Shown: positions 12,609 through 58,533 of the stretch, piece by piece
Layout: each line of letters begins with the position of its first letter
How positions within the stretch are numbered: position 1 is the first letter of the stretch
From: Centroberyx gerrardi
Lineage: Eukaryota; Chordata; Actinopteri; Beryciformes; Berycidae
Reading direction: 5' to 3'
NCBI RefSeq assembly: GCF_048128805.1
Contig: NC_136012.1
Coordinates: 5,993,121-6,057,120, forward strand
Length of the DNA stretch: 64,000 nt
Notes under the pieces: generated by a model
Seen by the model: only the letters and a program-made list of their open reading frames with translations
Databases searched by the model: none
Told to the model about the DNA's origin: nothing
Made by a program: the position numbers and the translations under genes

Positions 12609-23225
<10,617 letters not shown>

Positions 23226-38385: not shown

Positions 38386-38420
<35 letters not shown>

Positions 38421-38837
38421 ATCATCAAGCTGGAACTGTTTGCTGATATAGAATTCTGTTGGAAGGAACAAAGATTTATACACTTCCATCTACATATGCA
38501 CACACTCTGTCATACATGCACTCTTGCTCTCAATTTAGCTTGATTTACCAATCATTCCACCCCCCAAACCAGAGTCTTGGTTGTCTCCCTGTCTGCAGCT
38601 ATAGCAGCGTTGCTAGAGGAAGGGGAGAGTGTGGAAGATTTGATGAAACTCAGTCCTGAGGAGCTGCTCCTGCGCTGGGTCAATTTCCATTTAAAGAAAG
38701 TTGGAATGAGCATAAAAAACTTTTCCGGGGATATTAAGGTAAGAAAACCCTACCGACAAAACTGGTGCCAGCAAGCAAATGTGGAACTATTTTGCTGATA
38801 GTGTAGCTTAACAACACTGTGTCTCTCTGTGTCTATC

Positions 38838-38879
<42 letters not shown>

Positions 38880-39619
38880 GAACTCCGAGGCATATTTCAA
38901 CCTGCTCCAGCAGATTGCTCCCGATGGCAGCCAAGAGGACGTTCCACGGATTGACGTTGATATGCACGGTCTAAATGTAAGCTGATTCATCTACACTTAA
39001 AGCTACGACTTACTATGACTTGCTGTGACTTCCCTGTGTTGCAGCCGCTAGCCTCACCTTGATAGCCACAACCCAGCTCACTGTTGGCCAGGCCCACAGC
39101 AGATGGTATATGTCCCAAAATGTGCCCAACATCATTGAAAAGCCAATTGCAGGCAAACGGGAGGATTAAGACCTGAACACACAGGGACACAGACAGAAAC
39201 AGACTGATAATGTTATCACATGTTCTATTGTTATTTTAATGTGAAATAAGTTGCATTGGAGCTTTAATGTTTATGAATCAAGATGTCTGACATATCAGCA
39301 GTAATGTGAAATTTATATCTGAGTATATGAGGGGGAGATATAGAAATACAGAGAGAGAGACGGGGGCGGGGTTATTGGATTATTTCACTGCATTAATCTT
39401 CTAATGGTTTCTCCATTCAGCTGGCAGAGCAGTTCAGCAGCTCCACACAAACAGCAACAGTTTATACACACACACACAAACACACACACACACACAGTGG
39501 TATTGTGTGTGTGTATAGTGGAAGCTGACTTCCCGTTGACCTGCTTCCTGCTTCCTGTTGGGCTGTTTTAGGATAATGATATCAACCTGACTTTGAATCA
39601 CAGGAGGACAGGGCTCTCT

Positions 39620-39661
<42 letters not shown>

Positions 39662-39923
39662 CCCAGTCTATTTCACACAATGGACAGAAGTTGTACACTG
39701 CAAAACTGCATCAAGTAGCATAGCTTCACCAAAAACATTAGCATTTTCTTTACAAAATAATAATAAATCTTATAAAAATCTGTTAGAGAATGTTGCATGC
39801 AGATGTAATCAGTTTTGTAAACTCACACTGACATATTTCTTCTCAGTAAAAATGTCCAGCTACAATGCGTCAAGTGGCATACCGTTGCCAAATATTAGCA
39901 TTTTTATACAAACGCCTAAAATG

Positions 39924-39954
<31 letters not shown>

Positions 39955-40714
39955 TACCAGGCCCAGGATCTCACGAAGAGAGCAGAGTATATGCTGGAGC
40001 AGGCCGACCGTCTCGGCTGCCGACAGTTTGTGACTGCGACCGATGTTGTCAGAGGAAACTCCAAACTCAACTTGGCCTTCGTGGCCACGCTCTTCAACAA
40101 GCACCCCGCTCTCACCAAGCCAGAGGACCAGGACTGGACTCTGGAAAGTAAGCATGGATGAGTAATCCCTCACACACATCGACACTCTCATGCTTGTGTC
40201 TGCATCTACAGGCCAGCGTAGGGTTCAGTGCACGTACAACCTGAATTGCAGTTTGAATTTACTTAGTGAATCGGTTGAATTGAAAGTGAATTGAACTGGC
40301 AGTGGCAGCTATTCCTATCATTATTGCTCTCTCCACCTACAAGTAAAAACTGGATTGAAGTTAGCTTGGTATTGGATATTGGTGGATATTTATTTTTCCA
40401 CCTTAAATAACTTGTAAAAAAAACAAACATTATCATTATTGAAAGAATTTACAGCCACTGGTTTCAATATTTGAGAATATCCACAGAAACACTAATATCC
40501 AATTTCCAGTATCAAGCTAACTTTACTCCACAACCCACAGCTAAATGCAACAAATTCACGCCCCTTCTCTGGAAGTTGACAAAGGCATTCTGGGAAATGT
40601 AGTTACACTTCATCACAAAATAACTGTAAATATTGTGGAAAGTTTTGCCAAAGAAAAAAAAACGGGGTTCAGTTTATCAATTTCTGGTGATATTTCCCAT
40701 TGACCAATAATTGT

Positions 40715-40745
<31 letters not shown>

Positions 40746-43119
40746 AGGTGAGACCAGAGAGGAGAGAACGTTCAGGAACTGGATGAATTCTCTAGGGGTC
40801 AATCCATTTGTTTACCATATCTACGGGTCAGTGTCTGCCTGTCTGAATGACTGAATTCATTTAAAATGTTGACTGACTGACTGACTCAATAATAAACTGA
40901 CTTACTGACTGCCCAACTCCACACTGCTGACTTACTCTACTGTTACATTTACTGTAGTTAGCCTCATATTTAACATTATTACTGCATATTGCCACGCTGG
41001 TAAACAGCTTATTCTTTAAATGCACGTGCTCTGTGATTCTTCCCAAATTACTGGACACCTAATTTACTCAATTTTTGAATTGGGTGATGTCAATGGTCAT
41101 GGCAACAGTACTGATATGTTTTAATTAGTCTGGATCACAGCGTGATCCCAAGCTGAAAAAGTTGAAGAACCTACTTAAAGGAATACACCAAGTTTTTGGT
41201 AGATTGTCCCGTTAACCTTTAAGTAATGAGAACATAGACACCAAAATCATACGTGTCCCTGGTAGATCATTGGCTCCATGCTAACACTTTAGCATACACT
41301 ATGTTGAGTGATAGTATGCTACAATAACATAATGTTTTTTTGTTTCTTCCTATGTGTGTGTGTGTGTGTGTGTGTGTGTATGCAGTGACCTGCAGGATGC
41401 CCTGGTGATTCTCCAGCTTTATGACAGGATTAAGGTGCCAGTGGACTGGAATAACAGAGTCAACCGCCCTCCATACAAGGCAATAGGAGGGCATTTAAAA
41501 AAGGTAACTATGTAAACACACATATAAAGGTACATATATACCTTTCTCTATCGCTCTCTCATTCTCAACAACTGGGCTTGTGTGTGTGTGTGTGTGTGTG
41601 TGTGTCACAGATGGAAAACTGTAACTATGCTGTGGAGCTGGGTAAGACATCAGCTGGTTTTTCCCTGGTGGGAATCGGAGGTCAGGACCTCTACGATGGA
41701 AATGCAACTCTAACCCTGGCGCTGGTCTGGCAGCTGATGAGGAGGTAATAATGACTTACAGGTGCTATGTGTATCATTTTAACATCAGTAAATCATTGCC
41801 ACATTCATTTTGAGACATTAGTATAATTAGCGTAAACAAGTGAGAACATTGGCAGCCACTACCAGCCTCTACACTGCATTTTACATTGTCAGCCACCAGG
41901 TAGGATTTGGCGGGAAATCTGCTGGATTGCTTTACGGCACAAAACAGGAAGAGGGTGCTTTATCCTTGATCCTTTATCTCTGTTTGCAGAGCAAACAGAG
42001 ATAAAGCTTTCAGAGTTTCTGGTAATGGCAGATGGTGGAAGGAGTGAAAGGAAGATGGAAAAATCACTTCCAGCATGTTTATCCTCTTCCGTAAAGCAAC
42101 TCGCTGGCTGCACCCTAATCTTCATATCTGAAAACATAATAGGACAAAAACTGCCGATATTCTCACATGTATTCTTCGCATTTGTGTGCAGGTACACTTT
42201 AAATGTTCTGGAAGACCTTGGAGATGGAGAGGCTGCAGGAGACGAGCTGATCATTAACTGGGTCAACAAGATTTTGGCTGAGGCTGGCAAGACTTCATCC
42301 ATCAAAAGCTTTAAGGTCAGTTTGTTTTACCGAACTACAACTCAAACATCCTGCATGCAGTATTATTGTAGGAAGAGAATGATATTATATTGTGGATTAT
42401 ACTATTATTATGCTAAGTGGGTCAGTTAGTTAGGTGGACCTGGTTTATATATTGCAGTGTGGATGCATGTGTGATGTGTGTGTGTATCTGTGTGTCCCTC
42501 TGTTCAGGACAAGGAGATCGGCACCAGTCTTCCAGTTCTGGACCTGATTGACGCCATGCAGCCAGAGAGCGTGAACTTTGACCTGGTTAAAACAGGCAGT
42601 CTGTCAGAAGAGGACAAGCTGGACAATGCCAAGTAATCACCTGTCTCGCTGAGTGTGTGTGTGTATAATAATGATGTACGGAGGTGCATCAGACTCAAAA
42701 ACATCTGAGAATACGTAGAATAGATCTGAACTTGACTTAAAAAGCAATTCTGAACATCTGTGGATTCAACATTAAAACACATTTTTGCAGATATTTTCTG
42801 TGTCTACAAATTCCAATACAGTTGAAAACTATCCTACATGTCCTCAGATGTTTTGAGTATAGTCTACCTTGATAAAGATGAAGACTGAATAATATAGGAT
42901 ATAATATATGGCATAATAATTTTTTTTTTTTTTCAAATTTTGCAATTTAGCTTAGTTCATTCAGGTGTAATAAGGGGCTGAATACTAGCACTTTTTAACT
43001 TTATTGTATATGTTTTTTTTAATATTCCTAGAATATGCTTTGCTTGTTAGAGAGAATAGAGGATTTCAGGTAAAATACCAACCCGCCCAATCAATTAATC
43101 AGTTAATAGATAGATAGAT

Positions 43120-43166
<47 letters not shown>

Positions 43167-43404
43167 CAAGTAAAAACAGAAATAAATACATATATACATA
43201 ACACATTATGAGGGCCATAGGTCTAATTTGTTGCCATGGTGACCCTGACTGTGACTCCGCCCCCCCACCAGGTACGCCGTTTCCATGGCGAGGAAGATCG
43301 GCGCCAAAGTCTTCGCGCTGCCTGAGGATCTGGTAGAGGTCAACCCCAAGATGGTGATGACCATCTTCGCCTGCCTGATGGGGAGAGGCATGAAGAGGGT
43401 GTAG
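35315..43404 (+). CDS. Plastin/fimbrin, plastin-3-like actin-bundling protein
   Basis: This is a cytosolic Ca2+-sensitive F-actin bundling protein. The fifteen coding exons are 35315-35372 (exon from 35307), 36052-36203, 36578-36707, 37043-37175, 37496-37577, 38216-38381, 38599-38738, 38881-38976, 39961-40147, 40748-40826, 41386-41503, 41611-41744, 42192-42315, 42508-42632 and 43272-43404. They join to 618 aa; human plastins are about 627-630 aa. Two EF-hands have canonical loops at residues 20-31 ([12 protein letters not shown]) and 56-67 ([12 protein letters not shown]). Four calponin-homology domains form two actin-binding modules, with family signatures [59 protein letters not shown] and [12 protein letters not shown]. 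It ends in [10 protein letters not shown], as do PLS3 and LCP1. Several blocks ([24 protein letters not shown]) favour PLS3, others do not, so the exact paralogue is left open. The EF-hand region is 2-3 residues shorter than in human plastins. Confidence 0.95.
35474..35931. mobile_element. Harbinger-type MITE in a plastin intron
   Basis: The element at 35477-35928 has long inverted ends: GGGGGCGATCACACCGAGAA at the left and TTCTCGGTGTGATCGCCCCC at the right, an exact reverse complement over 20 bp. It is flanked by TTA on both sides (35474-35476 and 35929-35931), the 3-bp duplication typical of PIF/Harbinger elements. The interior is unusually rich in GC and CpG (GACGCGCGTCGC, GGCGCGCC) and has no transposase. 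Confidence 0.85.
36027..36046. repeat. C20 homopolymer at the plastin exon acceptor
   Basis: Twenty consecutive C residues followed by TCTAG form the entire pyrimidine tract of the acceptor for the EF-hand exon at 36052. Homopolymer length is prone to sequencing error. Confidence 0.9.
36204..36530. repeat. Degenerate AACT/GACT tetranucleotide tract
   Basis: CTAACTAACTAACTAATTAA at the start grades into diverged CTGACTGA and TAACTAACTGAC units through the plastin intron. It looks like an old decayed tetranucleotide microsatellite. A related CAGT/CAGA tract lies at 37705-37776 in another plastin intron. Confidence 0.65.
40355..40524. repeat. Inverted repeat in a plastin intron
   Basis: The left arm GTTAGCTTGGTATTGGATAT (from 40360) is mirrored by AATATCCAATTTCCAGTATC followed by AAGCTAAC (40492-40520). 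GGATATT/AATATCC is also repeated inside. It is a small palindromic element of unknown class. Confidence 0.55.
41757..42080. mobile_element. MITE-like element, copy 3 of a three-copy family
   Basis: It begins TTACAGGTGCTATGTGTATC and shares TTTTAACATCAGTAAATCATT, the TACACTGCATTTTACATTG block and TTGCTTTACGGCACAAAAC with the copies at 26363 and 34727. The right end is diverged and the boundary approximate. It lies in the plastin intron before the exon at 42192. Confidence 0.6.
43123..43163. repeat. (GA)n microsatellite
   Basis: A near-pure GA run preceded by GATA units, about 110 bp upstream of the last plastin exon. Confidence 0.9.
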
Positions 43405-43419
43405 AGGACGCGCGTGCAT

Positions 43420-43453
<34 letters not shown>

Positions 43454-44475
43454 ACCGTCTTCGCCTGTTCGACGTGGGTTTCCTCCCACAGTCCAAAGAC
43501 ATGCAAGTCAGGTGAATTGGACACTCTAAACTGCCCATAGGTGTGAATGCGAGTGTGTCTATCTGTAAAGTGGGTAAAGTCAATGAATGAATGAAAGACT
43601 GGGCAACATTTAAAGGCAATGCGTGTCGCCGATATCGGCAACAAGTATGACCAACATTTTTTGTATTCTTGATTACATGTTCGTTTAGACAGGTTTTGTT
43701 ACTATTTCTCAGAAGCAAATATTCAAGGATGTGATTTTTCTGGTCTTGATATTTCAGGGGTTTGCATTTATTTCTTATGAGACTTTACCGCTGTCTCGCC
43801 TTTATCCTGCTGTTTGTTTCCCCCGATCACAGTTTCCCATGTGTCGTTGCCTTAAGACGAGCATTTAATGTACTTAAGCCATAATATTCTGTACTTGATA
43901 CCTGTTGACCTTAGCCATTTTATGACCAAAACTGTGCTAGATTATAGGCAGGTTATTTTTTCACACTCTAAAGTGATGTTGCCTTGGTGCTGCAGTCAAA
44001 TGACATCCAGGCTGCAGGTTAGAGGTTCGTTGCTGCTGCTGTTAACATTCCACAGTCTTAAAATTCCTTTTCCTTTATTCCAAATGCTTCCCAGTAAAGC
44101 AGCTGCTCCGGGAATGCGATGGTTTCTTTTTACTAGTGACAGAATACTGACATTTTTCTCTTCCAAATCAGCAGTTACTCTCCAATATTGCAGGTTGTCG
44201 TCATAATATTGGAGGGTAACTGTTGATTTTGACGAGGGTTGTTTCCAATCCAATAAAACCCTTGCATTCTTTTTTTTTTTTAAATATGAGGGGCCGCAAA
44301 TGCTACTCATCATCGCAATTTTACAACAGTAATCTGCCGAATCGAAGCGCTGTCATTGTGGCAAATTGTGTCCCATGTGTCAAAAAATGCTTTAAATGCT
44401 ATAGCAATACTTCCAAATGTTAGTGTGTACAATTACACAATTGAATTGTGTTAAATAAAGGCATTTTCCATATAA
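43405..44475 (+). other. Probable plastin 3' UTR
   Basis: The region runs from the TAG at 43402-43404 to a canonical AATAAA at 44454-44459, the first clear poly(A) signal in a favourable AT-rich context. It contains a CA tract (43421-43451) and a near-perfect 25-bp hairpin (44165-44229). Where cleavage occurs is inferred. Confidence 0.5.
44165..44229 (+). repeat. Hairpin with 25-bp stem in the plastin 3' UTR
   Basis: AAATCAGCAGTTACTCTCC followed by AATATT (44165-44189) pairs with AATATTGGAGGGTAACTGTT followed by GATTT (44205-44229) with about two mismatches, around a 15-nt loop. It could be a short palindromic repeat or a structured RNA element. The stem is shorter than that of a typical microRNA precursor. 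Confidence 0.6.
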
Positions 44476-45631
44476 TTTGTTTATTTGTTGTTTTTTAATA
44501 ATTTTCTATAGCTGCTCTACACCTGTAGTGTGTCCATGAGCCAGATTTCATCATTTGAGAAAATCTACTATAATATTATAAATAATATACTAGAATATTT
44601 TTTAAGGGTTAAAAACTATAACATTATGTAAAACAACTCTATTTTTACTATGTGCATCATTAAAATCACATTCGACTTTTAAAGTATTTAATTTATATAT
44701 ATATAAATTGTCCTGGTACTGCTGTAATCAGAACCATTGTATGTTTTAAGTGTTATCTTATGCACAATTTGATTGTACAGTGAAGTTGTCAGGCTGTGCA
44801 TTAGTCTACTTGTCATGTATTAAGGACATTTCCCCCATGGTCATGTCCTCATGCAGCAGCAAAACACTGAGGACAACACAAAGACACACTGCCAGGGAAT
44901 ATGAATTTTGTCCTCAACGAGTTTGTCTATGGCCACGGACACTGATGTGACATCATGCCAACACTATGGATAGTTCTAGTTCTATCAGTGTTTCCACCAT
45001 TATAGCAAAATAATTCATTGAGATTATTACAGTGTATAACAATTGAATTGTCTGACATAAAGCTAAAATCATACTGCTATAACACTTAAGGTAATTTACT
45101 GTAAGACATACTTCAACCCAAATGCATTTCCACAAATTTTATTATTTTCTTGGTGGAATAAAGCTTTTTTTTTTTTAAGTCTACATTGAAACGTAAATCT
45201 TTATTGCAAAGTATTAGACATGCATTTAAAATCAGTAAGAGAGACCTGTATTGTTGTTTTATTGTATTATGAATTCATTGATTGAGCATTGCCAACTTAT
45301 AACTTAGTATTTTAAAACCTTCATTCATTCAGTGTTTACAGGTGCGATAAGTACGATTTTTACTTAGAATTTTATTTTAGTTTTTTATTTAACCTTTATT
45401 TTACCAGGTAAATCTCATTGTGATTAGGAATCTCATATCCAAGAGAGACCTGGCCAAAAACAGGCTGATAAAAGTCATAGATTACTTAATGCCCCTTTAA
45501 CATTTTAATGAAAAGAAATTGTTTGGTGACATACATTTTTGGTATGGTCATACAGGTGGAAAAAAATGAGCGAAGTCATGCATTTTTCAATAAAATATGT
45601 GAAAAACACTCTGAGCTCACACTGTATCTAT

Positions 45632-45678
<47 letters not shown>

Positions 45679-45871
45679 CATTCATTCTCAGGTATTTATT
45701 CCTCGGTTGCAAATGACAAATTATAGTTTTAATGTTTCAATTTTGATTCAAATCCATTTCCTGCATTGAACTGAATTGAAAATAAATCGAGGTGTGAGCA
45801 GGTGTGTGCTTAGAAACACACTTCCCACTCGGTAATCAGAGCTGATTACGATGTTTGCCGTCACACACTCA

Positions 45872-45917
<46 letters not shown>

Positions 45918-45997
45918 TGCAGCTTAGAGGCCACTTCAAACAAGGTTCTTGAATTCAGATGAGCTTGCTGGTACAAAAGGAGTGCAGCTCAAGGGGA

Positions 45998-46031
<34 letters not shown>

Positions 46032-46194
46032 TTTGCAATTTAAAAGGTGGTTTTGTCGAGTGCCATGTGATCATTCCTTTTATCTGTCTCTTGTCCATCC
46101 ATCCATCCCTTCATTTGTGTGTGTTCATCTGTCCTTCTCTTACTGTAATCAGTCTGCTGTGGATCTAACTAAATACAGAGACAGACAGACAGAC

Positions 46195-46229
<35 letters not shown>

Positions 46230-46947
46230 AGTGAAATGAATTGAAATAGATTGACGTGCTGAACTTTGGGACAACAGGAAAATTATCAGGTTTGTTGATT
46301 TCTAGAATGTTTTTACGTCTCCATCTCTCTGTCATTCTCTCATATCATCTATTGCCATGGCAACCATACAGCTTGTTGCTATGTCATCTGGTTTCCGTAG
46401 TGATGTCTCAACGCTGACCTCGTATTAGATGACCTCCCTTTTCTCTGTGTGTGTGTGTGTCAGTTGCTGTGTGCATGTGTGCTGGTTAGTGGGTTGGTGT
46501 GTGTATGTGTGTGTGTCAGTCTGCATGTGTGAGGATCTCACTCCGTGTTTGCATGTGTGTTTCTCTATTTCTCTGTGTGTGTGATGCCTTGTGTTTTATT
46601 GTGTTTGTGTGTGTGTGTGTCTGTCTGCATTAGTGTGTATTGTGACCATGTGTGTGTATGTATATGAGTTTGGTGTTTTGGTTTGCAAGTGTGTGGGTGG
46701 TGTGTATGTGTGTGTGTGAGAGGGACAGAGAAAATGTGTGTGTGTGGTGATTGCGTGAATTTACTGTGTGTATATTTGATGTTTTGGTGTGTTTGAGAGA
46801 TAATGTGTGTTTTCTCTGTGTGTGTGTGTGTGTCTATGTTCAGTTTCATAGATCAACTGATATCGTCTCTAGTTGTCTGTCTGTACTGATTAAATTGAAA
46901 ATGAATTGAAGCTTGCCTTGGTGTGTGTGTGTGTGTGTGTGTGTAGT
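44476..46947. other. Intergenic region between the plastin and channel genes
   Basis: No conserved coding exon is recognised here. A teleost interspersed-repeat-like segment lies at 45370-45465 (ATTTAACCTTTATTTTACCA ... GAGACCTGGCC). TG/CA tracts lie at 45634-45675, 45872-45914 and 46000-46029, a GATA tract at 46196-46229, and a long degenerate TG-rich stretch at 46447-46834. The channel 5' UTR and promoter must lie near its right end but cannot be placed. Confidence 0.6.
46447..46834. repeat. Degenerate TG-rich low-complexity stretch
   Basis: Many short (TG)4-8 blocks are separated by diverged sequence over nearly 400 bp, just upstream of the first coding exon of the channel gene. It looks like an old decayed dinucleotide array. 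Confidence 0.75.
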
Positions 46948-47039
46948 ATGACAGGTCAGGCGGTGGATTCGCACAGACTGTCTGTGAAAACGTGGACAGA
47001 AGAGGAGAGTGACCGAGCTGACAGCATACTTAGCAGGTA

Positions 47040-47072
<33 letters not shown>

Positions 47073-47329
47073 AAAACAAATTTCATGATTTTATGTGTAT
47101 TGGTAGTATCTGTATATGTGTGTGTGGGGCACATCAATGTGTTCAGATATATACTAATAGTCTCAGTATAGTGCTATACTATATGCAATATACTGTATAT
47201 ACTTGTGCAATCAAATAATATGATAAACAACTTGTGAGAATGAGAATTATAGCTTTATCATTCATAAATGTGATGATAGTTTAGTTGAAGCTTTTGATAA
47301 ATCACAGAAAATCTGAGAAAATTGATTGA

Positions 47330-47370
<41 letters not shown>

Positions 47371-47887
47371 GCCAGTCGATGTGTGATGACACCTGTTCAG
47401 AGCTACAGAGAATGGCGGCCATTGACAGAAGAGACCTTAACTCCCAGAATTCCTTTCGTGGGCGAGGTGCTCTGTCCAGGTATGACTGCTGGGCAATGAC
47501 CTGATCCACAGATTGACTATCTATCTATCCATCTATCCATCTATCTATCTATCTATCTATCTGATATGTTGGGCAGATTCCAGGTCTGAATGTGTTCTCT
47601 GTCTCCAGGTTAGTTAGTATGGTGATGACGCTGAGAGAATGGGCCCATAAGAGTTTGGCTGAAGAGGCAGAGCGACCGGATTCCTTCTTGGAGCGTTTCC
47701 GAGGCCCCGCCCCCGTGGACCTACAGGCCCCGCCCAGCAGGTTTAGCCACACCCACACCGACTCTGACACAGATACTGAAGGCAGACGCGCCAGACGCAC
47801 GTAAGAGAAGAAAACACACATAAGAAGCAGACACATTAAAACACTGACTGACATTTGTATACATCTCTCTGTCTTTGTCTGCTTCTT

Positions 47888-47919
<32 letters not shown>

Positions 47920-50900
47920 AGGAGGAGGAGGTGTAATGTGTTGGTCTTGTCCCCATCTGATGATGCCTACTACTACTGGCTGATGGTGATTGGTGCTGCT
48001 GTTCTGTATAACTGGACCCTCCTAGTCGTCAGGTCAGGAATCACATATCATTACTACTACTACTACTACTACTACTGCTACTGATGTTTCTACTACTACT
48101 ACTACTACTACTGCTACTGATGTTTCTACTACTACTACTACTACTACTGCTACTGATGTTACTACTACTACTTCTTCTACTACAACTACTACTAATACTG
48201 ATGTTACTACTACTACTCCTACTACTACTAATACTGATGTTACTACTACTACTACTACTGCTACTGATGTTACTACTACTACTTCTTCTACTACAACTAC
48301 TACTAATACTGATGTTACTACTACTACTCCTACTACTACTAATACTGATGTTACTACTACTACTACTACTACTACTGATGTTACTACTACTACTTTGTCT
48401 ACTACAACTACTACTAATACTGATGTTACTACTACTACTACTACTACTACTACTGATGTTACTACTACTACTTTGTCTACTACAACTACTACTAATACTG
48501 ATGTTACTACTACTACTACTACTACTACTACTGATGTTACTACTACTACTTTGTCTACTACAACTACTACTAATACTGATGTTACTACTACTACTACTAC
48601 CCCTACTACTACCGATGTTACTATACTACTACTATTACTGCTACTACTACTAATACTGATGTTACTACTACTACTACTACTACTACCAATGTTACTACTA
48701 CTACTACTACTACTACTGCTACTACTACCAGTACTGAGGGAATGCCTATCTGTGTGTGTAGGGCCTGTTTTGATGAGCTCCAGATGAAGGGTGTGTTGGT
48801 GTGGCTGGTACTGGACTATCTCTGTGATGGAGTCTATATCCTGGATATGGCTGTTCGTCTGCGCACAGGTAATAAAATAAAATAACTGAAATGAAACTTC
48901 CTGTCCTGAAATCTCCTGGACAGGCGAGATATTCCTACATGGGAAGTCTTCATAAGAAACTCTCTATTATCTGGAAATTATGAAGTGGAACTCATGTTCT
49001 GATAGTATGTGTGAGAATGGTTGATTATGTGACTGTATCTGCACATATATTTGCTTGCTACAGATTTCTTGGATCAGGGTGTAATCAAATACATTTGTCA
49101 TCTGAGAGAGATTTCTTGTGCAACTTGATAACTAAAGTTTATCATTATTATGTTTATACTGTGTGTTAAGGTTTCTTGGATCAGGGCTTGATGGTGAAAG
49201 ATGTGCGTCGCCTGAGAGAAACCTACTTTCGCAAAGTCCAGTCTAAACTTGACATCTGCTCCATCCTTCCCACCGACCTCCTGTACCTCACCGTGGGACT
49301 CGCCTACACTCCTCTTCTTCGATTCAACCGGCTGCTTCGCCTGCAACGTCTCTTTGAGTTCTTTGAGCGTACAGAAACCCGAACGGGCTACCCCAACGCT
49401 TTCCGCATCTGTAAACTGGTTCTGTACATCCTGGTGATCATCCACTGGAACGCCTGCGTTTACTACAGCTTCTCCAAGGTCCTGGGACTCGGCTCGGATT
49501 CCTGGGTTTATCCCAACGCTTCTGATCCGGAGTTTAGCTCTCTGGCCAGAAGTTATATATACTGCCTGTACTGGTCCACTCTGACACTGACTACCATCGG
49601 AGAGACACCGCCTCCTGTTAGAGATGAAGAGTATCTGTTCTTGGTATTTGACTTCCTGGTAAGTTCATAGCAATTATGTAACCTTAGCTTTGCTGATGTC
49701 TTACCTTGACCGATATATAACCTTAATTCCACTAACAACCTCCTGTCTCTGACACTTAGGTACGTTCACATGAGCATTTGTGATATCCCAGGTATTTCAA
49801 TGAAACCTATGCGTTCACGAATTATATGGATTGATGGAATGCAGTGCGTGAAAATATCGCAACCCAGTCTGTCAAAAAAGAAAAAGTAAAAGTAGTTGAA
49901 CTTTTGACGGAGCGCAGGTAAGCGTCATCTGCTAATGGACTTCATCAGCCAATGAAATTTGTACAGACTGCTTCAAAAGGTTTCGAAACCCACCCCCACA
50001 ATGCAACACAACCTAGCTGGTTTCAACGCAGACTTGTTTGTGAATGTGACGCATGCCAAATGTCCCATGTGAACCCCACCTTACCCTGCATTCAAATTCA
50101 GGTTGTACTTTTCTCCGAGTCGGGAATACATCACAACTCTGCCATCCAAGTAGTTCGCATTCACATACTTTATGGTTGGAAAATTGGAGAACGTTTCCTC
50201 AACCATTTACACACATTGCCAGCCTTCTAGACTAACGTTTGCAATGGAGCTAGCAATAGCCTAGCTAGCAAGCAATCTTCGGCTATTTCAGGGGATTATG
50301 AATGTAAATACCACAGGAAATTTAATGTTGTTGTAGCACTAAGTTATCAAGGAATATACATGTCTTTTAAATATGTACTTGTGGTTCATTTTCGGCTTTA
50401 TTGTATGAAATTTATTACATTCAAGTACGACTCTGTGTTCTGTTCAGCCATGTTGGAACGAGCGATTACGTTACAACCCAGCTAATTTGTGCCGCATCTA
50501 CAATCCCGATTTCTCCGACTTGATCATCCGACATAATAAGATGTTCATGTGGCACTTTCTGGTCGGAAACTCGTTCAGACTGTAAATCCGACACCACTTG
50601 AATGCAGTTATCCTAACCTTAGGTATAATAGCCTTATACCTTGTGGCTCCCAATGAATCCAATGTATCAAGAATGTATCTAAAATGCACCAAAAACCCTG
50701 TCAAGAGTCATTAGTCATCAGCCAATTGCACTTACCTATTTTTGAATTACTAGCCATGATACTGACATATCTATTTTAGGTTGGTGTCCTGATTTTTGCC
50801 TCTATCGTGGGGAATGTTGGAGCCATGATCTCCAACATGAACGCTACGAGAGCAGCCTTCCAGAGCCGCGTGGACGCGCTGAAGCACTACATGCACTTCA

Positions 50901-52432
50901 GACACGTCAGCAAGGAGCTGGAGCAGCGCGTCATTCGCTGGTTCGACTACCTCTGGAGCAATCAGAAGGCTGTGGACGAACAGGAGGTGTTGAAGAGCCT
51001 GCCCAATAAGCTGAGAGCGGAGATTGCTATTAATGTTCACCTGGACACACTGAAGAAGGTAAAAACCCAAACACAACATGACCCCTTAAAGTCCATTTCT
51101 AAACCCTTAAATCCCATGATGGTCGCTCATATTTTAACACATTTTAACACTAAAACATTTCTAAATGTGTTCTTCAGCTTCCACAAAATGGCTTATTGCA
51201 ATTAGCTATAAGGAGAAGATATTACCATCAATTGCTACCCCATCTTCTAACCCTGACCATTACCTGTGTGTGTGTGTGTGTGTGTGTATGTGCACAGGTG
51301 CGTATATTCCAAGACTGTGAAGCAGGCCTGCTGGTAGAGTTGGTGTTGAAACTTCGACCGCAAGTCTTCAGTCCTGGAGACTACATCTGTCGAAAAGTCA
51401 GTATTACTTTTACTACTACTGCTGATAAAATGATAGTACATTACTACTGTTAGTACTACTACTACTACAACTAGCGTAAATGCATCCATTGTTAGACAGC
51501 TAGCGGCTAGACATTCATTATCTAACAGACCTTCTGCAGTTTTTCCCATCGATCAAACATAATGACTTTCCCGTCCTATGTATTCTCCAACCTTTTGTTT
51601 CCTAGGGAGACGTGGGTAAGGAGATGTACATCATTAAAGATGGCCGCCTGGCGGTGGTGGGGGAGGATGGCGCCAGCCAGTTAGCCGTTCTGACCGCTGG
51701 AAGCTGCTTTGGAGAAATCAGCATCCTGAACATCAGCGGCAGCAAGATGGGGAACAGACGCACGGCTAACATCCGTAGTCTGGGCTACTCGGACCTCTTC
51801 TGCCTTTCCAAACAAGACCTGATGGAGGCGCTGCAGGAGTTCCCCCACGCCAGGGCCCAGCTGGAGCAGAGGGGGCGGGACATCCTGCAGAAGGAGGGGC
51901 TTCTAGAGGAAGTGAATGTGTCTGCAGGGGAGGAGCTTGAGGAGAAGGTGGAGAGGTTGGAATCCAGTCTGGACCGGCTACAGGTAAATAGTACTACTAA
52001 TGCCACTAACCAATACTACTACTACAACTACAACTACAACTACTAATACTACTACTACTACTACTGCTATTGCTATTGCTATTGCTATTGCTATTGCTGC
52101 TACTACTACTACTACTACTACTACTGCTATTTCAAAAATAATAACAAATTTTGGAATTGGAAGTTTTACACTGTTAACAATGTAATGTGAGAAAATGTTT
52201 AACTCTGTCCAGATATTAATACTAATAATAATAATGTTGCCTTCAGACCTGTCTGGCCCGTTTGCAGAGCGAGTTCAACTCCTCCCAGCTTCGACTGAAA
52301 CAGCGAATCACGGCCCTGGAACACAACATCACCACGGCAACCACGGGCAGCGGCTTCCTGTCCGACGCCGATGGCAACGAGAGTGTCTCCGGGGGCGACG
52401 GCATACGCAGCGAAATCAACATCCGGCTCTGA
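46948..52432 (+). CDS. cnga2: Cyclic-nucleotide-gated cation channel alpha subunit, CNGA2-like
   Basis: This is a plasma-membrane cation channel subunit opened by cAMP/cGMP; family members serve olfactory and photoreceptor transduction. The ten coding exons are 46948-47036, 47369-47479, 47609-47800, 47922-48032, 48762-48868, 49171-49658, 50780-51058, 51298-51396, 51606-51983 and 52247-52432, joining to 679 aa (human CNGA2 664, CNGA3 694). S1 begins at [16 protein letters not shown]. The pore TTIGETPPP (about residues 344-352) keeps the permeation glutamate. The C-linker follows, then the cyclic-nucleotide-binding domain (about 460-590: [35 protein letters not shown]) and a C-terminal leucine-zipper-like coiled coil ([16 protein letters not shown]). 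The N-terminus (SELQRMA..., [20 protein letters not shown]) matches the CNGA2 type, including the region homologous to its calmodulin-binding segment. ACFDELQ and the C-terminal coiled coil are closer to CNGA3, so a CNGA3 assignment is not excluded. The ATG follows a TG run closely, so an upstream 5' UTR exon is likely. Confidence 0.9.
47331..47367. repeat. (TG)n microsatellite forming the acceptor of channel exon 2
   Basis: About 18 TG units end directly in the AG acceptor before 47369, again without a conventional pyrimidine tract. A similar run (46919-46944) precedes the first coding exon at 46947. Confidence 0.9.
48046..48735. repeat. Compound trinucleotide (ACT/TAC)n array with higher-order period
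   Basis: Nearly 700 bp of ACT units fill the intron between channel exons 4 and 5. The array is punctuated regularly by ACTGATGTT and by blocks such as TTCTTCTACTACAACTACT or TTTGTCTACTACAACTACT, giving a higher-order repeat of roughly 60-130 bp. Long leucine- or threonine-rich frames run through it but are artefacts of the repeat. Confidence 0.95.
51990..52130. repeat. (TAC)n and (TTGCTA)n compound microsatellite
   Basis: ACTACTACTACAACTACAAC runs into TAC units, then about six copies of the hexamer TTGCTA, then TAC units again. It lies in the last intron of the channel gene. Shorter TAC tracts of the same kind occur at 51408-51476 and 53342-53375. Confidence 0.9.
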
Positions 52433-53412
52433 TTGGCTGATTGATTATGGAAGTAGCATGCAGCATTTTCATTGTTGCAAAATTACTTAGTGTGCTACTT
52501 TCATTCATTCAAAAAAGTGAAAGAAAAGCACATGGCTTATCAGTTTTTGCTCTTGCTGTTCTCCATTTGCCAGTGCCTGTCTTAATGTATGTTCTTTCCA
52601 TCTATTTTAAAGATATTTTCATGTATTTCATATTTTATATATTTTTATCTTTTATATCTTAAATCTCTCTTATATCTTTTTTCTCCCGTTTCTACCCTCT
52701 TAAAATTTTACACTTTTTTTGTTTCAACTTTTTATTGAGGAATATACAGTAAAAAACAAAAAAATACATTCCTGGTATCCGAGACTTTTAACAATTTTCA
52801 CAACAATTTACAATTTTCATAGCATTTATCCTAAGCATAGAAGGAAAAACAGAGAAATACCCTACTGTTCTCCTCATAAAATTTTATACTTTTTTTAAAG
52901 GAGAACAAGCAGTTTACTCCCCCTGGTATATATTGTGACAGTTTATTGTTCGTATGTGTTCTCTAAAGCTGTTCTCTGTAATTTGAGACCTCTGTGTTGA
53001 CTATGCCTTAGAAACCATAACAAACCCGGTAAAACCAGTTAAACAATTACAATTTCTGCCATGGATCACCGATGTTTTTCTTCAGCAGGTTGGGTTCTTT
53101 TTAAACTAGCCTGAGAAAAAACTGAAAACTTTTTAGAAAAGCCTTCTGAACTTGTTTGTATTGTGTCTTGAAAAGTTTTTACTCCTACGTTTAGAACTTT
53201 GAGATCTAGGCTATTGTTAAATGGAAATCATTTTACTCTAACAATTATTATGTTTATTGTTAATAATAAATATTGTGTTAACCCTAAAGCTGAACATTCC
53301 TTGTGAGTTTGATAACCCTGCCATATAGTTTTGTAGAACACAGTACTACTACTACTGCCATTGTTACTACTAGTACACATTGTGTGTAATCCTGAATGGC
53401 CATGTGCATGTT

Positions 53413-53461
<49 letters not shown>

Positions 53462-54059
53462 TAACTGCAATCCGCATGCTTTGTAGCCATGTCAACTAGT
53501 GACTTGGGACCAAAGTCCAACATCACATGACTGGAAGAATTCAGGAAGTGTTTTTTAAGAAACTGGGGAAAACAGGAAGATCAGGTAGAAACACTCTGTC
53601 TGGTTCTCTCTACCTTTCTCTCTCTGTTGCTCTCTCTTTTACTCTTCCATGTCACTGCTTGTTTTTTCTCTTTTCCTTTCCCCCTATGTCTTTCTCCCTG
53701 TCTTTATCTGTCTCCTCTCTTCCCTCCTCTCCTCTATCTCCCTCTGTCTCAGCCTTTTCATTGACAGTAGGCTGACTTTCTGTCATTGTATAGAGCTGGA
53801 TTTACATCAGCATTGCTTTCCTTTATTCGCAATAGGTTTTCCATGCTACACCTGTAATGTTAAGGTCAGATTCAGGTCATGCAGGGTTTACAAATTAGAC
53901 TTTTTGTCTCTATTCCTGTGGAAATACAGTATTAGACCCATAACCTTCGTTTTTATCAGTGGTCTTATTTTAGTGTGTCTGTGTGCATGCTTATGTGTGG
54001 GTGTGTGTTTGTGCACATATTCACATGCATGTGTGTGTCTGCAAGTGTAAGTTTCAGAG
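52433..54059. other. Channel 3' UTR and short intergenic region
   Basis: A candidate poly(A) signal AATAAA for the channel gene is at 53265-53270. A segment at 52715-52860 (CAACTTTTTATTGAGGAATA onward) looks like the end of an interspersed element of unknown class. A TG tract lies at 53418-53460 and a CT-rich tract at 53605-53755. No conserved coding sequence was recognised; in particular I see none of the calnexin lectin-domain motifs upstream of the next gene. Confidence 0.6.
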
Positions 54060-55383
54060 ATGGAGATTAGCAGTGTGTTGCTGTGCATGGTGTTAGTAGC
54101 CAGTGTGACACCAGTGTCTGCTGCGGCACAGGTAAGCCCTGCTTTTATGTTACTATTCAGTTGTTCTTTTAATAATTTTTTAAGGCAGTTCAGCCTATTA
54201 TTCATTAGTATCCCAGGACCAGGAGACCCCATGTTGCACTTATTTAAGCAGGAAAGAGAGAATTACAGGGTTCGGATTCAAGAAGTAGCTCATGTCACTT
54301 TTTCTTCAATGAATGATATGCCCTCTCCACTCACTTTAATTGCTCTCAAAAATCCCATCAACCTCTCTCCTTAGCTCTATTTTCTAGCCATTTGGTCTTA
54401 CATGATCACTCTGTGGTCACAGGAATATCAGGGCACTGCAGCTCTGACCTTTGACCTCCTTACTGTTGGTTACTTATAATGTTGGTGAGTTTAAGCTTGC
54501 CCTACTGTTGCAGTCACTGTAAGTCACTCTGGATAAGAGCATCAGCTAAATGTCCTACATGTAAAATGTTACACAAAATTAGTTTTCTGCAGAATGCTAT
54601 ACCTCCAACTTTGCCATTTTCACAATATACAGAACAATGCACCGACATTTGGAGTGCAAGCAAACAAGTCAACTATTTAATTATAATACGATACGCTCTG
54701 TTTTAAAAAAGAAATACACATCATACACCGGATGAACACACAATCACATTGCACATAAAACACATAATCACACTACACTCAATTACACATAAGCATCAGA
54801 ATAGCACATCCTGGGATACCCCCATATTGCACTGAGCCCTTATATTGTACCCTCCACCCTAAAAAATGATGTTTATTGTTTAGGGAAGGTCAGAGAGCTG
54901 TTCTTTCAAGGATATCTTGCCTTGTGTAAGGTAAAGATGTTGGTAAACCAAAGCCTTTACGCAAAAAATACACAAATGAACACATTGTCAGAATATAGAG
55001 TCCATCTATGGTGTTTTACAGCACCTCTTACTGGCTACTCCAGGCATCTGTGTAGGTCTCTATCTGAATCCCTACCAGCTCCAGGACTGCTGTTCTGTAG
55101 CTGAACCTGACCTCTGACCTCCCTGGATATATAGTTATTATTGTGTATCTATATCTGTATAGTGCATATATATGTGTAAATATATATCTTTATGCATATC
55201 CTAGCCTGGTGTCATAGAGAGCCTCCTGTTGGCCACCCAGCAGCGTCCCTGGCTGTGGGGCCTCTATGTCTTCATTGTTGGACTTCCCATCATCCTCTTC
55301 GTCAGCCTCATGTGGCCTGACAAGGTACTGTAGGTGTGTGTGTGTGTGTTTGTGGTTTGGTCTAGTACAAATATAGGGAATCT

Positions 55384-55418
<35 letters not shown>

Positions 55419-55533
55419 TAGAGGTTTGGACCCCCTGATCAGCAGTACTATTACAAGAAGTCTGATGATGCTCAACCAGACGACCCTCAGTTCTCACAAC
55501 TGGCACAAACACTGGAAAACAATGGTAACATTA

Positions 55534-55572
<39 letters not shown>

Positions 55573-55881
55573 CAACAGTAATACTAGTAGTAGCAGTAGT
55601 GGTAGTTTCAGTAGTAGTTTACTAGTAGTAGTGGTGGTAATAATAGTAGTTGCAGGAGCTGTAGTAGTGTTATTTATATTGTCAGTATTCTATTCTATTC
55701 TATTCTATTCTGTGTGTAGGGAGGGCTGACAGATCTGTGGCCAGGAGGAGAGACACTCCAGGCAACCTGAGGAAGTCTGATTTAGACCTGAAGGTAAGAT
55801 TCACAATGCAATTATCTTAACTCATTCAATATTCTGGACGGAACCATTTGGAGCTATTGGGACAATGCCGATTTCAATGTT

Positions 55882-55918
<37 letters not shown>

Positions 55919-55927
55919 GGTCGATGA
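54060..55927 (+). CDS. Calnexin-like microprotein: signal peptide plus TM and cytosolic tail only
   Basis: Five exons (54060-54131, 55205-55324, 55422-55524, 55720-55793, 55919-55927) join to exactly 125 codons plus TGA. Exon 1 encodes a signal peptide (MEISSVLLCMVLVASVTPVS, then AAAQ). Exon 2 reads PGVIESLLLATQQRPWLWGL and continues through a hydrophobic segment to MWPDK. This aligns with the membrane-proximal and transmembrane part of calnexin, recalled from family knowledge as a PGVV...RPWLW...P motif. Exon 3 has YYYKKSDDAQPDDPQ, matching the calnexin and calmegin tail pattern YKK(T/S)D..QPD. The tail ends in a basic RRRDTPGNLRKSDLDLKGR. The globular lectin domain and P-domain arm (about 450 residues in calnexin) are absent, and no such exon is seen in intron 1 or upstream. 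Predicted: a type I ER membrane microprotein with almost no lumenal part. The function is unknown. All junctions are GT-AG, which argues against a random pseudogene. Confidence 0.75.
54132..55204. other. Intron 1 of the calnexin-like gene
   Basis: It contains a SINE/LINE-tail-like segment at about 54515-54568 (TAAGTCACTCTGGATAAGAG onward). It also has a segment at 55070-55125 (CCTACCAGCTCCAGGACTGC ... CTGACCTCTGACCTCCCTGG) that is nearly repeated at 11508-11563 in polr1a intron 1. Neither holds a calnexin-like exon. Confidence 0.6.
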
Positions 55928-58533
55928 TCGGCGCAGCAACCAGGAAAAAGGGAAAGCTGCATTGGTTCAGAACAACCTCCTTGACAACAGTTGCCATGGA
56001 AAAAAGTTCTCTCAATGCAACCAACTATTCTGCACAGTACAGTACGAGTCCACAAGAGGGCGGTGTGCTGTCACAACTTTGACCAACCAGACCGCATGGC
56101 TGAAACCACTGCTGAGACTACTGTGTGTAATACACAAACATCTGAGGACTGACTCATGTATTTTCAATGCAAATTAAATATTCTGCAGTATTGGTCCATT
56201 AAACCGTATCTGAGTGAGCAATTTCTTGACAATAAATAACATATATAAGCTAAAAAAATTTTTTTTTCAAATATTCCTAAATGTTCCCATCAGATTTATT
56301 TCACCTGTCCTTGACCCCAGGGGCTTCATGTCATAATGTTCTCTATAATGTAGAACTAAATTCAGTAGTGAAACACCTGCTATCAGTGATTCAAATTAAA
56401 ACTTAACTGCATTATAAGGGGAGTTGTAATCAAGAGTCCCTACTTCACACCTATTCACAATGTGCATCTAAAAGTGGGAGTATTTGTTGTGTTCTTCTAT
56501 CTTTCTATTTTACTTGATTTGATTCTTTTAATGCAATGCATCTTGCTTGTTCTTTTATATGAATTTTATCTTTTTATCTGTCTTTTATCTGCCTTTTATT
56601 GATGTAAAGCACTTTGAGCTGCATGTTGTGTATGAAAGGTGCTATACAAATAAAGGTTATTATTATTATTATTATTCCCAGTGAGGGGCATTGGAGAATA
56701 ATTACACTAATACATGTCCAAGATGTCACAGTGACCTCCGCACATACACCATACACACCCACACACTGTTCTACTGGGACTTCTCTACATTCATTTCTTT
56801 ATTCATTGGAGGTGATGTGGATGTTTGCTTGGCATGCATGAACTGACACTATCTAGATTTACCTATTTTGCAAATGGGTCTTTTTATTCTATATAGAATT
56901 ATGATAAATAAATTATGGAATTCTACAATTATTTTATGGGATGTGCATATTATGTAAGATATGTACTGTCAATGTAATATTTATTTTAACTTCCCTCCCC
57001 CCTTTACTTTATCCTATTACTTCTCCTATTCCCCTTTCCTTCCCAGGTCTATGATTGGTCTGTTTTTAATCAGTGTCACCTGTGTTCATGAGCCCTATAG
57101 GATATTTTTACAATGCTTTTCATCTTGTATTTTTATCAGATCAGGTCCATTTGGAATTAAACATGTTTTTAAAATCACAATGAAATGATATATGACTTTT
57201 CCACCTTGTTAGCTAATTCTCCATATCATAACGTACACTTATGTAACAATAAATGCCAAACAATTTACAAGATGTTCATTTTTTAAAATGTTTCTATTAA
57301 AATTCCATTACTTTCACTTCCTGGAAAATGGTGTATTTTTAGTGGTTACTCCCCTCCGCCCCTCCCATCATATAAAACCTGCAACTTTATGGTGTCTTAT
57401 AACCTAAGACACCATGGTTACATCTCAGTGGCTAAATATATTAATTTTGAAGAATCTGAGAAATTTGAGATGGCTCATTATGAGCAAAGCATTTGTCAAA
57501 TTTTGAACACTTTTGACCAGTAACCCTCCACGTTATGTCCCATCCCAACATACTGTTTCAACTGGAAACATGTCGAATTACAGAGGCGAGACACCATCAA
57601 AATTCTATTTCCTTGTGACTTTAATAAGACTGACTATTAAAATTTGGACACTTATCACTAAGAGTGTTGCACTTTGTAATCCTTCAAGGGAAAACACACC
57701 TTCAGTGGCATTTAGCTGGTATGGCAACATCTATTTGAAGTTAGAAATTGGCACATTATTACTAATCATTAAACCTTTGGAGCTAGACCAGCACCTTACA
57801 TCCACTATTCACCTACAGATTTCCAATGTTTGACTTGTATATAATATGATCACACTTTCTATTGTTACCCAACAAAATGATTTGTCAATGCTTTTAATGC
57901 CAGTCTTTTGAAGCAAACACTAGCCGGCTAAAAGGGAAGGAATGGAAAAATTGTTGTTCTGGTAAGTGGAGAACAGAGAGAACAGAAGGGAGGGAAGAGA
58001 TAAGGAGAGGAGGAGGAGAGAAAAGCCAAAAGACAACAGAGAAGAGAATTAGTGCTGTTGAGCAACACACTGAACCCCAACTCCATTCTTCAGGGACGCT
58101 GCACTTTGGCCGAACCTCTGCTTTTCACTCCTCTGATGAAATGCATAGAGGAATATGGTTACATTTTTTTTTCATATTATCATCTGTTACATGATGAATG
58201 AAGTGCCTGCTCTATTCTATTCTATTCCCCAAAAAACAATAGAAGTTTTCCCATAAGTCCTGCTGGTTTTGGCATGTGTGTCTGTTCTGACACTCTGCAC
58301 ATATTTTTTTTGATTTTATGACTGTAGAGAATCAGGTATTCTCTCTCTCTCTCTCCTTGGCTACAGCTTTTGTTTGGCTCTGGAGGTGAGGAATATTTCA
58401 CAAATCTAAAGCTTTGTGCAGGTTCCTGAGAGGAGAAAAGTCAAACAGATTCAACTGAACTCCTTGGAAGAAGTCCCCCTCTCGTTTGACTTGTAAGAGT
58501 TTACTGGTCTTTGGTACTGTAAGCAGGGAGAGG
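55928..58533. other. 3' UTR of the calnexin-like gene and intergenic region up to the FGL1-like gene
   Basis: AATAAA at 56231-56236 is the likely poly(A) signal of the calnexin-like gene. A LINE/SINE 3' tail of the L2 type lies at 56605-56676 (AAAGCACTTTGAGCTGC ... GGTGCTATACAAATAAAG followed by ATT units). The rest is AT-rich, without recognised genes. The 5' UTR of the next gene probably lies within 58380-58533. Confidence 0.6.
56605..56676 (+). mobile_element. 3' tail of an L2-type LINE or a SINE partner
   Basis: AAAGCACTTTGAGCTGC, GGTGCTATACAAATAAAG and a terminal (ATT)n run form the conserved 3' tail shared by L2-clade LINEs and their SINEs in fish. Only the tail is present. Confidence 0.65.

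What the first reader, a model, noticed from the sequence alone, without database searches (positions are those of the whole stretch)
54060..55927. A calnexin-like gene without its lumenal domains
Five GT-AG exons form an exactly in-frame 125-aa protein whose signal peptide is spliced straight onto a calnexin/calmegin-type transmembrane segment and tail (PGVIESLLLATQQRPWLW, YYYKKSDDAQPDDPQ). The whole lectin and P domain is missing. Such a protein could compete with calnexin for tail partners (ribosome, kinases, sorting factors) or anchor something at the ER membrane without binding glycans. I do not know of a described vertebrate gene of this form. The domain match is to known calnexin tails; the function is inference.
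Basis: partly seen in the sequence, partly recalled or inferred. Interest (0 to 1): 0.85.

Follow-up and report, generated by a model that had tools for sequence, protein, structure and literature searches.

The report
Calnexin gene lacking its lumenal domain
A fish-like genome carries a small gene that keeps the secretion signal, membrane anchor and part of the tail of the folding helper calnexin but has lost the whole sugar-binding part, which makes it a possible natural test of what the anchor and tail do alone.

Summary
Five GT-AG exons at the stated junctions read as one open 125-aa protein whose membrane/tail part is homologous to calnexin (PDB 8rjc, E 2e-10). The membrane exon has the borders and phases of this genome's own calnexin and calmegin, the tail introns have the same phases in the same order, and the signal exon ends in phase 0 in all three genes, so loss of every lumenal exon keeps the frame. 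No lumenal relic was found nearby. The 26 calreticulin-domain matches listed genome-wide fall in calnexin, calmegin, three KDEL-ended calreticulins and one fragment. Codon changes on this gene's branch suggest constraint, though the test is weak. It is nearest calmegin in the membrane exon (22 of 39 aa) and is the only such gene found here.

Not shown: transcription, presence in other species, function. The palmitoylation cysteines and acidic tail are gone. An engineered calnexin without its lumenal domain stays in the ER and binds a channel (PMC5599688, passages), so a natural version could work. My mechanism, glycan-blind action at the membrane, is inference. The main rival is a decaying relic. 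I found no natural case in print within the searches named.

The parts
54060..54131 (+). Exon 1: signal peptide MEISSVLLCMVLVASVTPVSAAAQ, donor CAG|GTAAGC, ends phase 0
   Evidence: signal exons of own-genome canx and clgn also end phase 0; similarity to clgn signal reached by 20 of 2000 region shuffles, to canx by 389 of 2000
54132..55204 (+). Intron 1, where canx/clgn carry their lumenal exons; no lumenal relic found
   Evidence: best E in 52400-55204 is 0.92; all 16 lumenal exon queries hit both the canx and clgn loci at E 1e-3 or better as control
55205..55324 (+). Exon 2: short lumenal stem and transmembrane segment PGVIES...RPWLWGLYVFIVGLPIILFVSLMWPDK, phase 0/0
   Evidence: 22 of 39 aa identical to clgn, 16 of 40 to canx; same exon borders and phases
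55422..55524 (+). Exon 3: juxtamembrane tail RFGPPDQQYYYKKSDDAQPDDPQ..., phase 0/1
   Evidence: core 6 of 12 aa identical to clgn, 7 of 12 to canx; phases as in canx and clgn
55720..55793 (+). Exon 4: basic tail RADRSVARRRDTPGNLRKSDLDLK, phase 1/0; position and phases of the acidic tail exon of canx/clgn, no recognisable sequence similarity
55919..55927 (+). Exon 5: GR-stop, phase 0 start; least certain exon
56231..56236 (+). AATAAA, possible poly(A) signal 304 nt after the stop

Best explanation
A third calnexin-family gene, nearest to calmegin in its membrane exon, that lost all exons between its signal exon and its transmembrane exon. Because both flanking introns are phase 0, the loss kept the frame. 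Predicted product: a type I ER membrane protein. The signal peptide is cut off, leaving about 20 lumenal residues, then a proline-kinked membrane helix and a tail of about 60 residues. Most likely action (inferred): it works at the membrane level. It offers calnexin/calmegin's membrane helix, which in calnexin contacts non-glycosylated membrane clients and probably TRAP, without lectin or P domain, so it can bind or shield membrane helices, or occupy calnexin's membrane site, without binding glycans. Shown: gene structure, homology, absence of lumenal exons, signs of coding constraint. Inferred: expression, ER location, membrane-level action.
For: Open 5-exon model. Calnexin homology. TM exon borders and phases 0-0-1-0 through the tail as in canx and clgn; phase-0 signal exons in all three. 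No lumenal exon found nearby, no orphan lumenal domain among the 26 genome-wide matches. Window branch 0.38/0.14/0.82 changes per codon position; second below third in 99% of bootstraps, mean of first and second below third in 97%. 28 of 51 aa shared with clgn against a mean of 14.2 with randomly placed changes, 0 of 5000 reaching it. Kink proline kept. Calnexin's TMD proline is tied to translocon association (PMC9913998, section 3 read); a TMD-plus-helix density on TRAP-gamma is provisionally calnexin (PMC11186639, passages); calnexin binds non-glycosylated membrane proteins via their TMDs (PMC10648718, passage); an engineered calnexin without the luminal domain stays in the ER (PMC5599688, passages).
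Against: No transcript or second species examined. Constraint may partly predate the loss of the lumenal exons. The branch test is weak: the intact canx branch does not show the same pattern clearly (second below third in 68% of bootstraps), and TM exon identity to canx alone is reached by 126 and 276 of 5000 random placements. The gene has more private changes at positions 1 and 2 (16 of 74 sites) than clgn (11) or canx (12). Juxtamembrane cysteines absent: palmitoylation is called crucial for TRAP contact (PMC11186639), and non-palmitoylated calnexin is degraded faster (PMC4765739, passages). In PMC5599688 the tail without the TMD still bound the channel, which favours a tail action over a membrane action in that case. 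Exon 4 has no recognisable homolog. No copy in 20 kb beside the CNG paralog on C11.
Confidence: 0.38

Rival explanations
1. Relic: a calmegin/calnexin duplicate that lost its lumenal exons and is decaying; the remaining exons happen to be open still.
For: Missing domain; only one such gene found; more private changes than its paralogs; lost cysteines and acidic tail; exon 4 without homolog; exon 5 codes only two residues.
Against: All 8 splice dinucleotides and 125 codons intact at about 0.8 third-position changes per site on its own branch. Randomly placed changes over the 51 aligned codons of exons 2-3 gave a stop in 4018 and 3969 of 5000 trials. Second-position constraint. Complete in-frame signal exon.
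Confidence: 0.22
2. Real gene acting mainly through its tail: it binds cytosolic parts of calnexin's clients or partners, retaining clients or acting as a decoy.
For: YKK juxtamembrane motif kept. PMC9913998 (sections 4-5 read) lists tail partners. In PMC5599688 (passages) engineered calnexin without the luminal domain co-precipitates Cav3.2, the tail binds its III-IV linker without the TMD, and the authors call this sufficient for ER retention. I raised this rival from 0.15 to 0.20 after seeing those passages.
Against: Acidic stretch and palmitoylation cysteines gone, tail pI 9.2, against 4.52 reported for human calnexin's C-terminal domain (PMC9913998); C-terminal similarity not significant.
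Confidence: 0.2
3. Coding gene that only reuses a calnexin anchor exon for an unrelated task, for example a small membrane-anchored regulator that leaves the ER.
For: Exons 1 and 4 have little or no sequence similarity to canx/clgn.
Against: Signal and tail exons keep canx/clgn phases; the signal resembles that of clgn (20 of 2000 shuffles).
Confidence: 0.13
4. The exons belong to a full calnexin whose lumenal exons were lost from the assembly or lie elsewhere.
For: None found. The genome search scores only its best candidates, so an undetected weak exon cannot be fully excluded.
Against: No N in the window. The 26 PF00262 matches listed fall in canx (6), clgn (7), calreticulins on C9 (4 and 4) and C13 (4), all three ending KDEL, and one fragment on C21. 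canx and clgn have TM exons of their own.
Confidence: 0.05

Closest known systems
Calmegin (clgn), own-genome copy at C3:22.72-22.73 Mb
   Same: Signal exon ending phase 0, TM exon borders, tail intron phases; 22 of 39 aa of the TM exon; W-P after the membrane helix
   Different: Window gene lacks all lumenal exons and the acidic tail and has one extra codon (D) after the helix
Calnexin (canx), own-genome copy at C16:28.85-28.87 Mb
   Same: Same exon plan and phases; 16 of 40 aa of the TM exon; tail core 7 of 12; kink proline
   Different: No lectin/P domain, no juxtamembrane cysteine pair, no acidic tail, no significant C-terminal similarity
[quoted passage not shown] PMC5599688, passages seen)
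   Same: Transmembrane segment and tail without lectin and P domain; it stays in the ER and co-precipitates the Cav3.2 channel
   Different: Laboratory deletion with the cytosolic region of normal calnexin; the window gene would be a natural gene with a shorter, altered tail
Caspase-cut calnexin tail peptide (PMC9913998, section 4.4 read)
   Same: Calnexin tail acting without the lumenal domain
   Different: Soluble peptide cut from full calnexin; here a membrane-anchored product would be encoded directly

Membership tests
Calnexin/calmegin family (functional, lectin chaperone) | Lumenal lectin + P domain (PF00262) | tested here: not met
Calnexin/calmegin family (by descent) | Homologous membrane segment and juxtamembrane tail | tested here: met
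Calnexin/calmegin family (by descent) | Same TM exon borders and tail intron phases; phase-0 signal exon | tested here: met
Calnexin/calmegin family (functional) | Juxtamembrane cysteines for palmitoylation | tested here: not met
   the only Cys is residue 9, in the signal peptide. The own-genome clgn has one cysteine there (FCW), so the pair is a calnexin feature
Calnexin/calmegin family (functional) | Acidic cytosolic tail | tested here: not met
   tail pI 9.16
Calnexin/calmegin family (functional) | C-terminal basic ER-retention motif | tested here: inconclusive
   RSVARRR present, but the alignment to the canx C-terminus is reached by 1320 of 5000 shuffles and to clgn by 2048 of 5000
Calnexin/calmegin family (functional) | Binding to TRAP/translocon or membrane clients through the TMD | not testable with these tools
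   needs experiments

The most novel reading that the evidence does not exclude
A maintained lineage-specific gene class: lumenal-free calmegins that act purely at the membrane, as glycan-blind chaperones of membrane proteins or as built-in competitors of calnexin/calmegin at their membrane sites.
Probability: 0.25. Interest if true: 0.78.

Novelty: new variant of a known kind. Interest (0 to 1): 0.55.

Why it matters
How much calnexin's membrane helix and tail do without the lectin has been studied with laboratory deletions. A natural gene that keeps the helix and drops the lectin would be evolution's own separation-of-function experiment and could be tested directly. If it is only a relic, it is a neat case of exon loss that kept the frame because both flanking introns are phase 0.

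Tried and rejected
Split or misassembled full calnexin: rejected. Chance signal exon: unlikely. Homology of exon 4 to the calnexin C-terminus: looked good by eye, not above shuffles. Shared synteny with clgn or canx: among the best 40 hits listed between window frames and 11 fetched loci, the only one I can name is the TM exon; the rest look repeat-like but were not identified. The window's CNG and plastin exons have their best paralogs about 15 kb apart on C11, and the 20 kb beyond that CNG gene shows no copy of the calnexin-like or fgl1-like exons. So I cannot say how the gene was duplicated. Literature: no natural lumenal-free calnexin gene in searches (listings, plus passages of PMC3434135, PMC1188056, PMC5599688 and PMC4765739); searches looked for mechanism. 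Bloemeke 2022 (intramembrane client recognition) is not held and is known here only from citing passages and recall.

Full report
WHAT IS THERE. The window lies in a 779-Mb genome of 278 contigs at C16:5993121-6057120. The five exons of the finding are present at the stated junctions, with GT-AG borders throughout, and give MEISSVLLCMVLVASVTPVSAAAQ-PGVIESLLLATQQRPWLWGLYVFIVGLPIILFVSLMWPDK-RFGPPDQQYYYKKSDDAQPDDPQFSQLAQTLENNG-RADRSVARRRDTPGNLRKSDLDLK-GR (hyphens mark exon joints). AATAAA follows 304 nt after the stop. Neighbours: an Rpb1_2-domain RNA polymerase gene on the minus strand, a plastin-like gene (named by eye; its 64-aa exon had no Pfam match), a cyclic-nucleotide-gated channel upstream and a fibrinogen-C gene downstream.

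HOMOLOGY. phmmer against PDB sequences gives calnexin 8rjc, E 2.2e-10, aa 20-94; the only other row (E 1.4) is unrelated. In the own genome the protein matches itself (4 of 7 rows), the TM exon of the C3 gene (47%, E 1.2e-9), that of the C16:28.86-Mb gene (44%, E 8e-5), and a C5 stretch at E 0.9. I call the C3 gene calmegin and the C16 gene calnexin by their tails (...QAVRKRRVRKD and ...RRSPRNRRLRKD); the names rest on recall. TM exon identities: window-clgn 22 of 39, window-canx 16 of 40, clgn-canx 23 of 39. Tail core: 6, 7 and 6 of 12.

EXON PLAN. In canx and clgn the TM exon starts CAG|CC(C/G)-GG and ends AAG|GT, phase 0/0; the next exon is phase 0/1, the acidic exon 1/0, and the last exon starts in phase 0. 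The window gene has the same phases in the same order, TAG|CCTGGT to AAG|GT for the TM exon. The signal exons of clgn (NVSFQ|GTCAGG) and canx (PPTPK|GTAAGT) end in phase 0, as does window exon 1. A signal exon can therefore be spliced to the TM exon without frame loss if everything between is deleted. This is the most economical account of how the gene arose.

NOT A SPLIT GENE. The own-genome search lists 26 PF00262 matches (only best candidates are scored, so this is a lower bound). None lies near the window. They fall in clgn (7), canx (6), two loci on C9 (4 each), one on C13 (4) and one on C21 (1). The C9 and C13 genes end in KDEL, as calreticulins do. The C21 piece reads like a calreticulin P-domain exon (assignment by recall; PF00262 E 2.4e-5, under the cut-off). 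Sixteen lumenal exon peptides of canx and clgn gave nothing better than E 0.92 in 52400-55204 and 0.10 in the whole window; all sixteen found both the canx and clgn loci at E 1e-3 or better.

IS IT MAINTAINED? Over 51 aligned codons window-clgn differ at 20, 12 and 34 first, second and third positions. 28 amino acids are identical against a mean of 14.2 (0 of 5000; reverse mean 15.1, 0 of 5000) when the same changes are placed at random. Against canx: 23 of 52, mean 15.8, 12 of 5000 (reverse 39 of 5000); with the TM exon alone 16 of 40, 126 and 276 of 5000. Because this mixes branches, I split the distances: the window branch has 0.38, 0.14 and 0.82 changes per first, second and third position; second is below third in 99% of bootstraps, the mean of first and second in 97%. 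Limits: the third position is near saturation; the clgn branch gives the same signal (99%) but the intact canx branch only 68%, so the test is noisy; constraint may predate the loss of the lumenal exons; and the window gene has more private changes at positions 1+2 (16 of the 74 sites where clgn and canx agree) than clgn (11) or canx (12). No estimate exists for exons 1, 4 and 5.

SIGNAL EXON. By a simple rule (hydrophobic core at least as strong as this exon's, small residues at -3/-1, in-phase donor of 7/9 or better) the expectation is 0.13 per 64 kb of one strand in 15 simulations, about 0.004 per 2 kb; with donor 8/9, none in 15. In the real window one other hit exists on +, in a GT-rich repeat, and none on -. 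The exon resembles the clgn signal (20 of 2000 region shuffles) but not the canx signal beyond chance (389 of 2000).

WHAT IT COULD DO. Kept: signal, short stem, the PG...RPWLW entry to the membrane, the kink proline, YKK. Lost: lectin and P domain, juxtamembrane cysteines, acidic stretch. PMC9913998 (abstract and sections 3-5 read) says the proline favours association with the ribosome-translocon and that palmitoylation of the cysteines does too. PMC11186639 (passages) provisionally assigns a TMD-plus-helix density on TRAP-gamma to calnexin and calls palmitoylation crucial for that contact. PMC4765739 (passages) links early decay of calnexin to the non-palmitoylated form, so this product may be short-lived. 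PMC10648718 (passages) says calnexin binds many non-glycosylated membrane proteins via their transmembrane domains. PMC5599688 (passages) is the nearest experiment: calnexin without its luminal domain stays in the ER and co-precipitates Cav3.2; the tail alone binds the channel's III-IV linker, and the soluble tail raises surface expression by uncoupling. That supports the view that such a protein can act at all, and it supports a tail action as much as a membrane action. I still favour the membrane level, because here the helix is the best-kept part and the tail the most altered, but by less than at first (0.40 lowered to 0.38, tail rival raised from 0.15 to 0.20). All of this is inference.

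COPY NUMBER AND ORIGIN. The best paralogs of the window's CNG and plastin exons lie about 15 kb apart on C11, which looks like a duplicated block. The 20 kb beyond that CNG gene shows the CNG end but no calnexin-like or fgl1-like exon. Around clgn (59 kb of C3) and canx (33.5 kb of C16) the best 40 hits listed include the TM exon and otherwise pieces that look like repeats but were not identified.

LIMITS. One genome, no transcripts, no other fish held, no structure model. Absence from print rests on searches of an open-access library only.

Noticed in passing
own genome C21:18947378-18947479 (L018): Isolated calreticulin P-domain-like exon in a 101-aa open frame; PF00262 E 2.4e-5 but under the cut-off; possibly a stray calreticulin exon or relic.
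   Followed up: partly
window 36982-52043 and own genome C11:19942549-19957327: Plastin-like and CNG-channel exons are neighbours in the window and have their best paralogs about 15 kb apart on C11, which looks like a duplicated block; the calnexin-like and fgl1-like exons were not found in the 20 kb beyond the C11 CNG gene.
   Followed up: yes
window 16652-17633: Repeat-like element whose translated stretches are up to about 94-97% identical to an element inside the clgn locus on C3 (L010); probably a transposon.
   Followed up: no
window 55793-55820: If intron 4 is retained, exon 4 reads on for 8 codons to a stop, so a four-exon form with a different C-terminus is possible.
   Followed up: no
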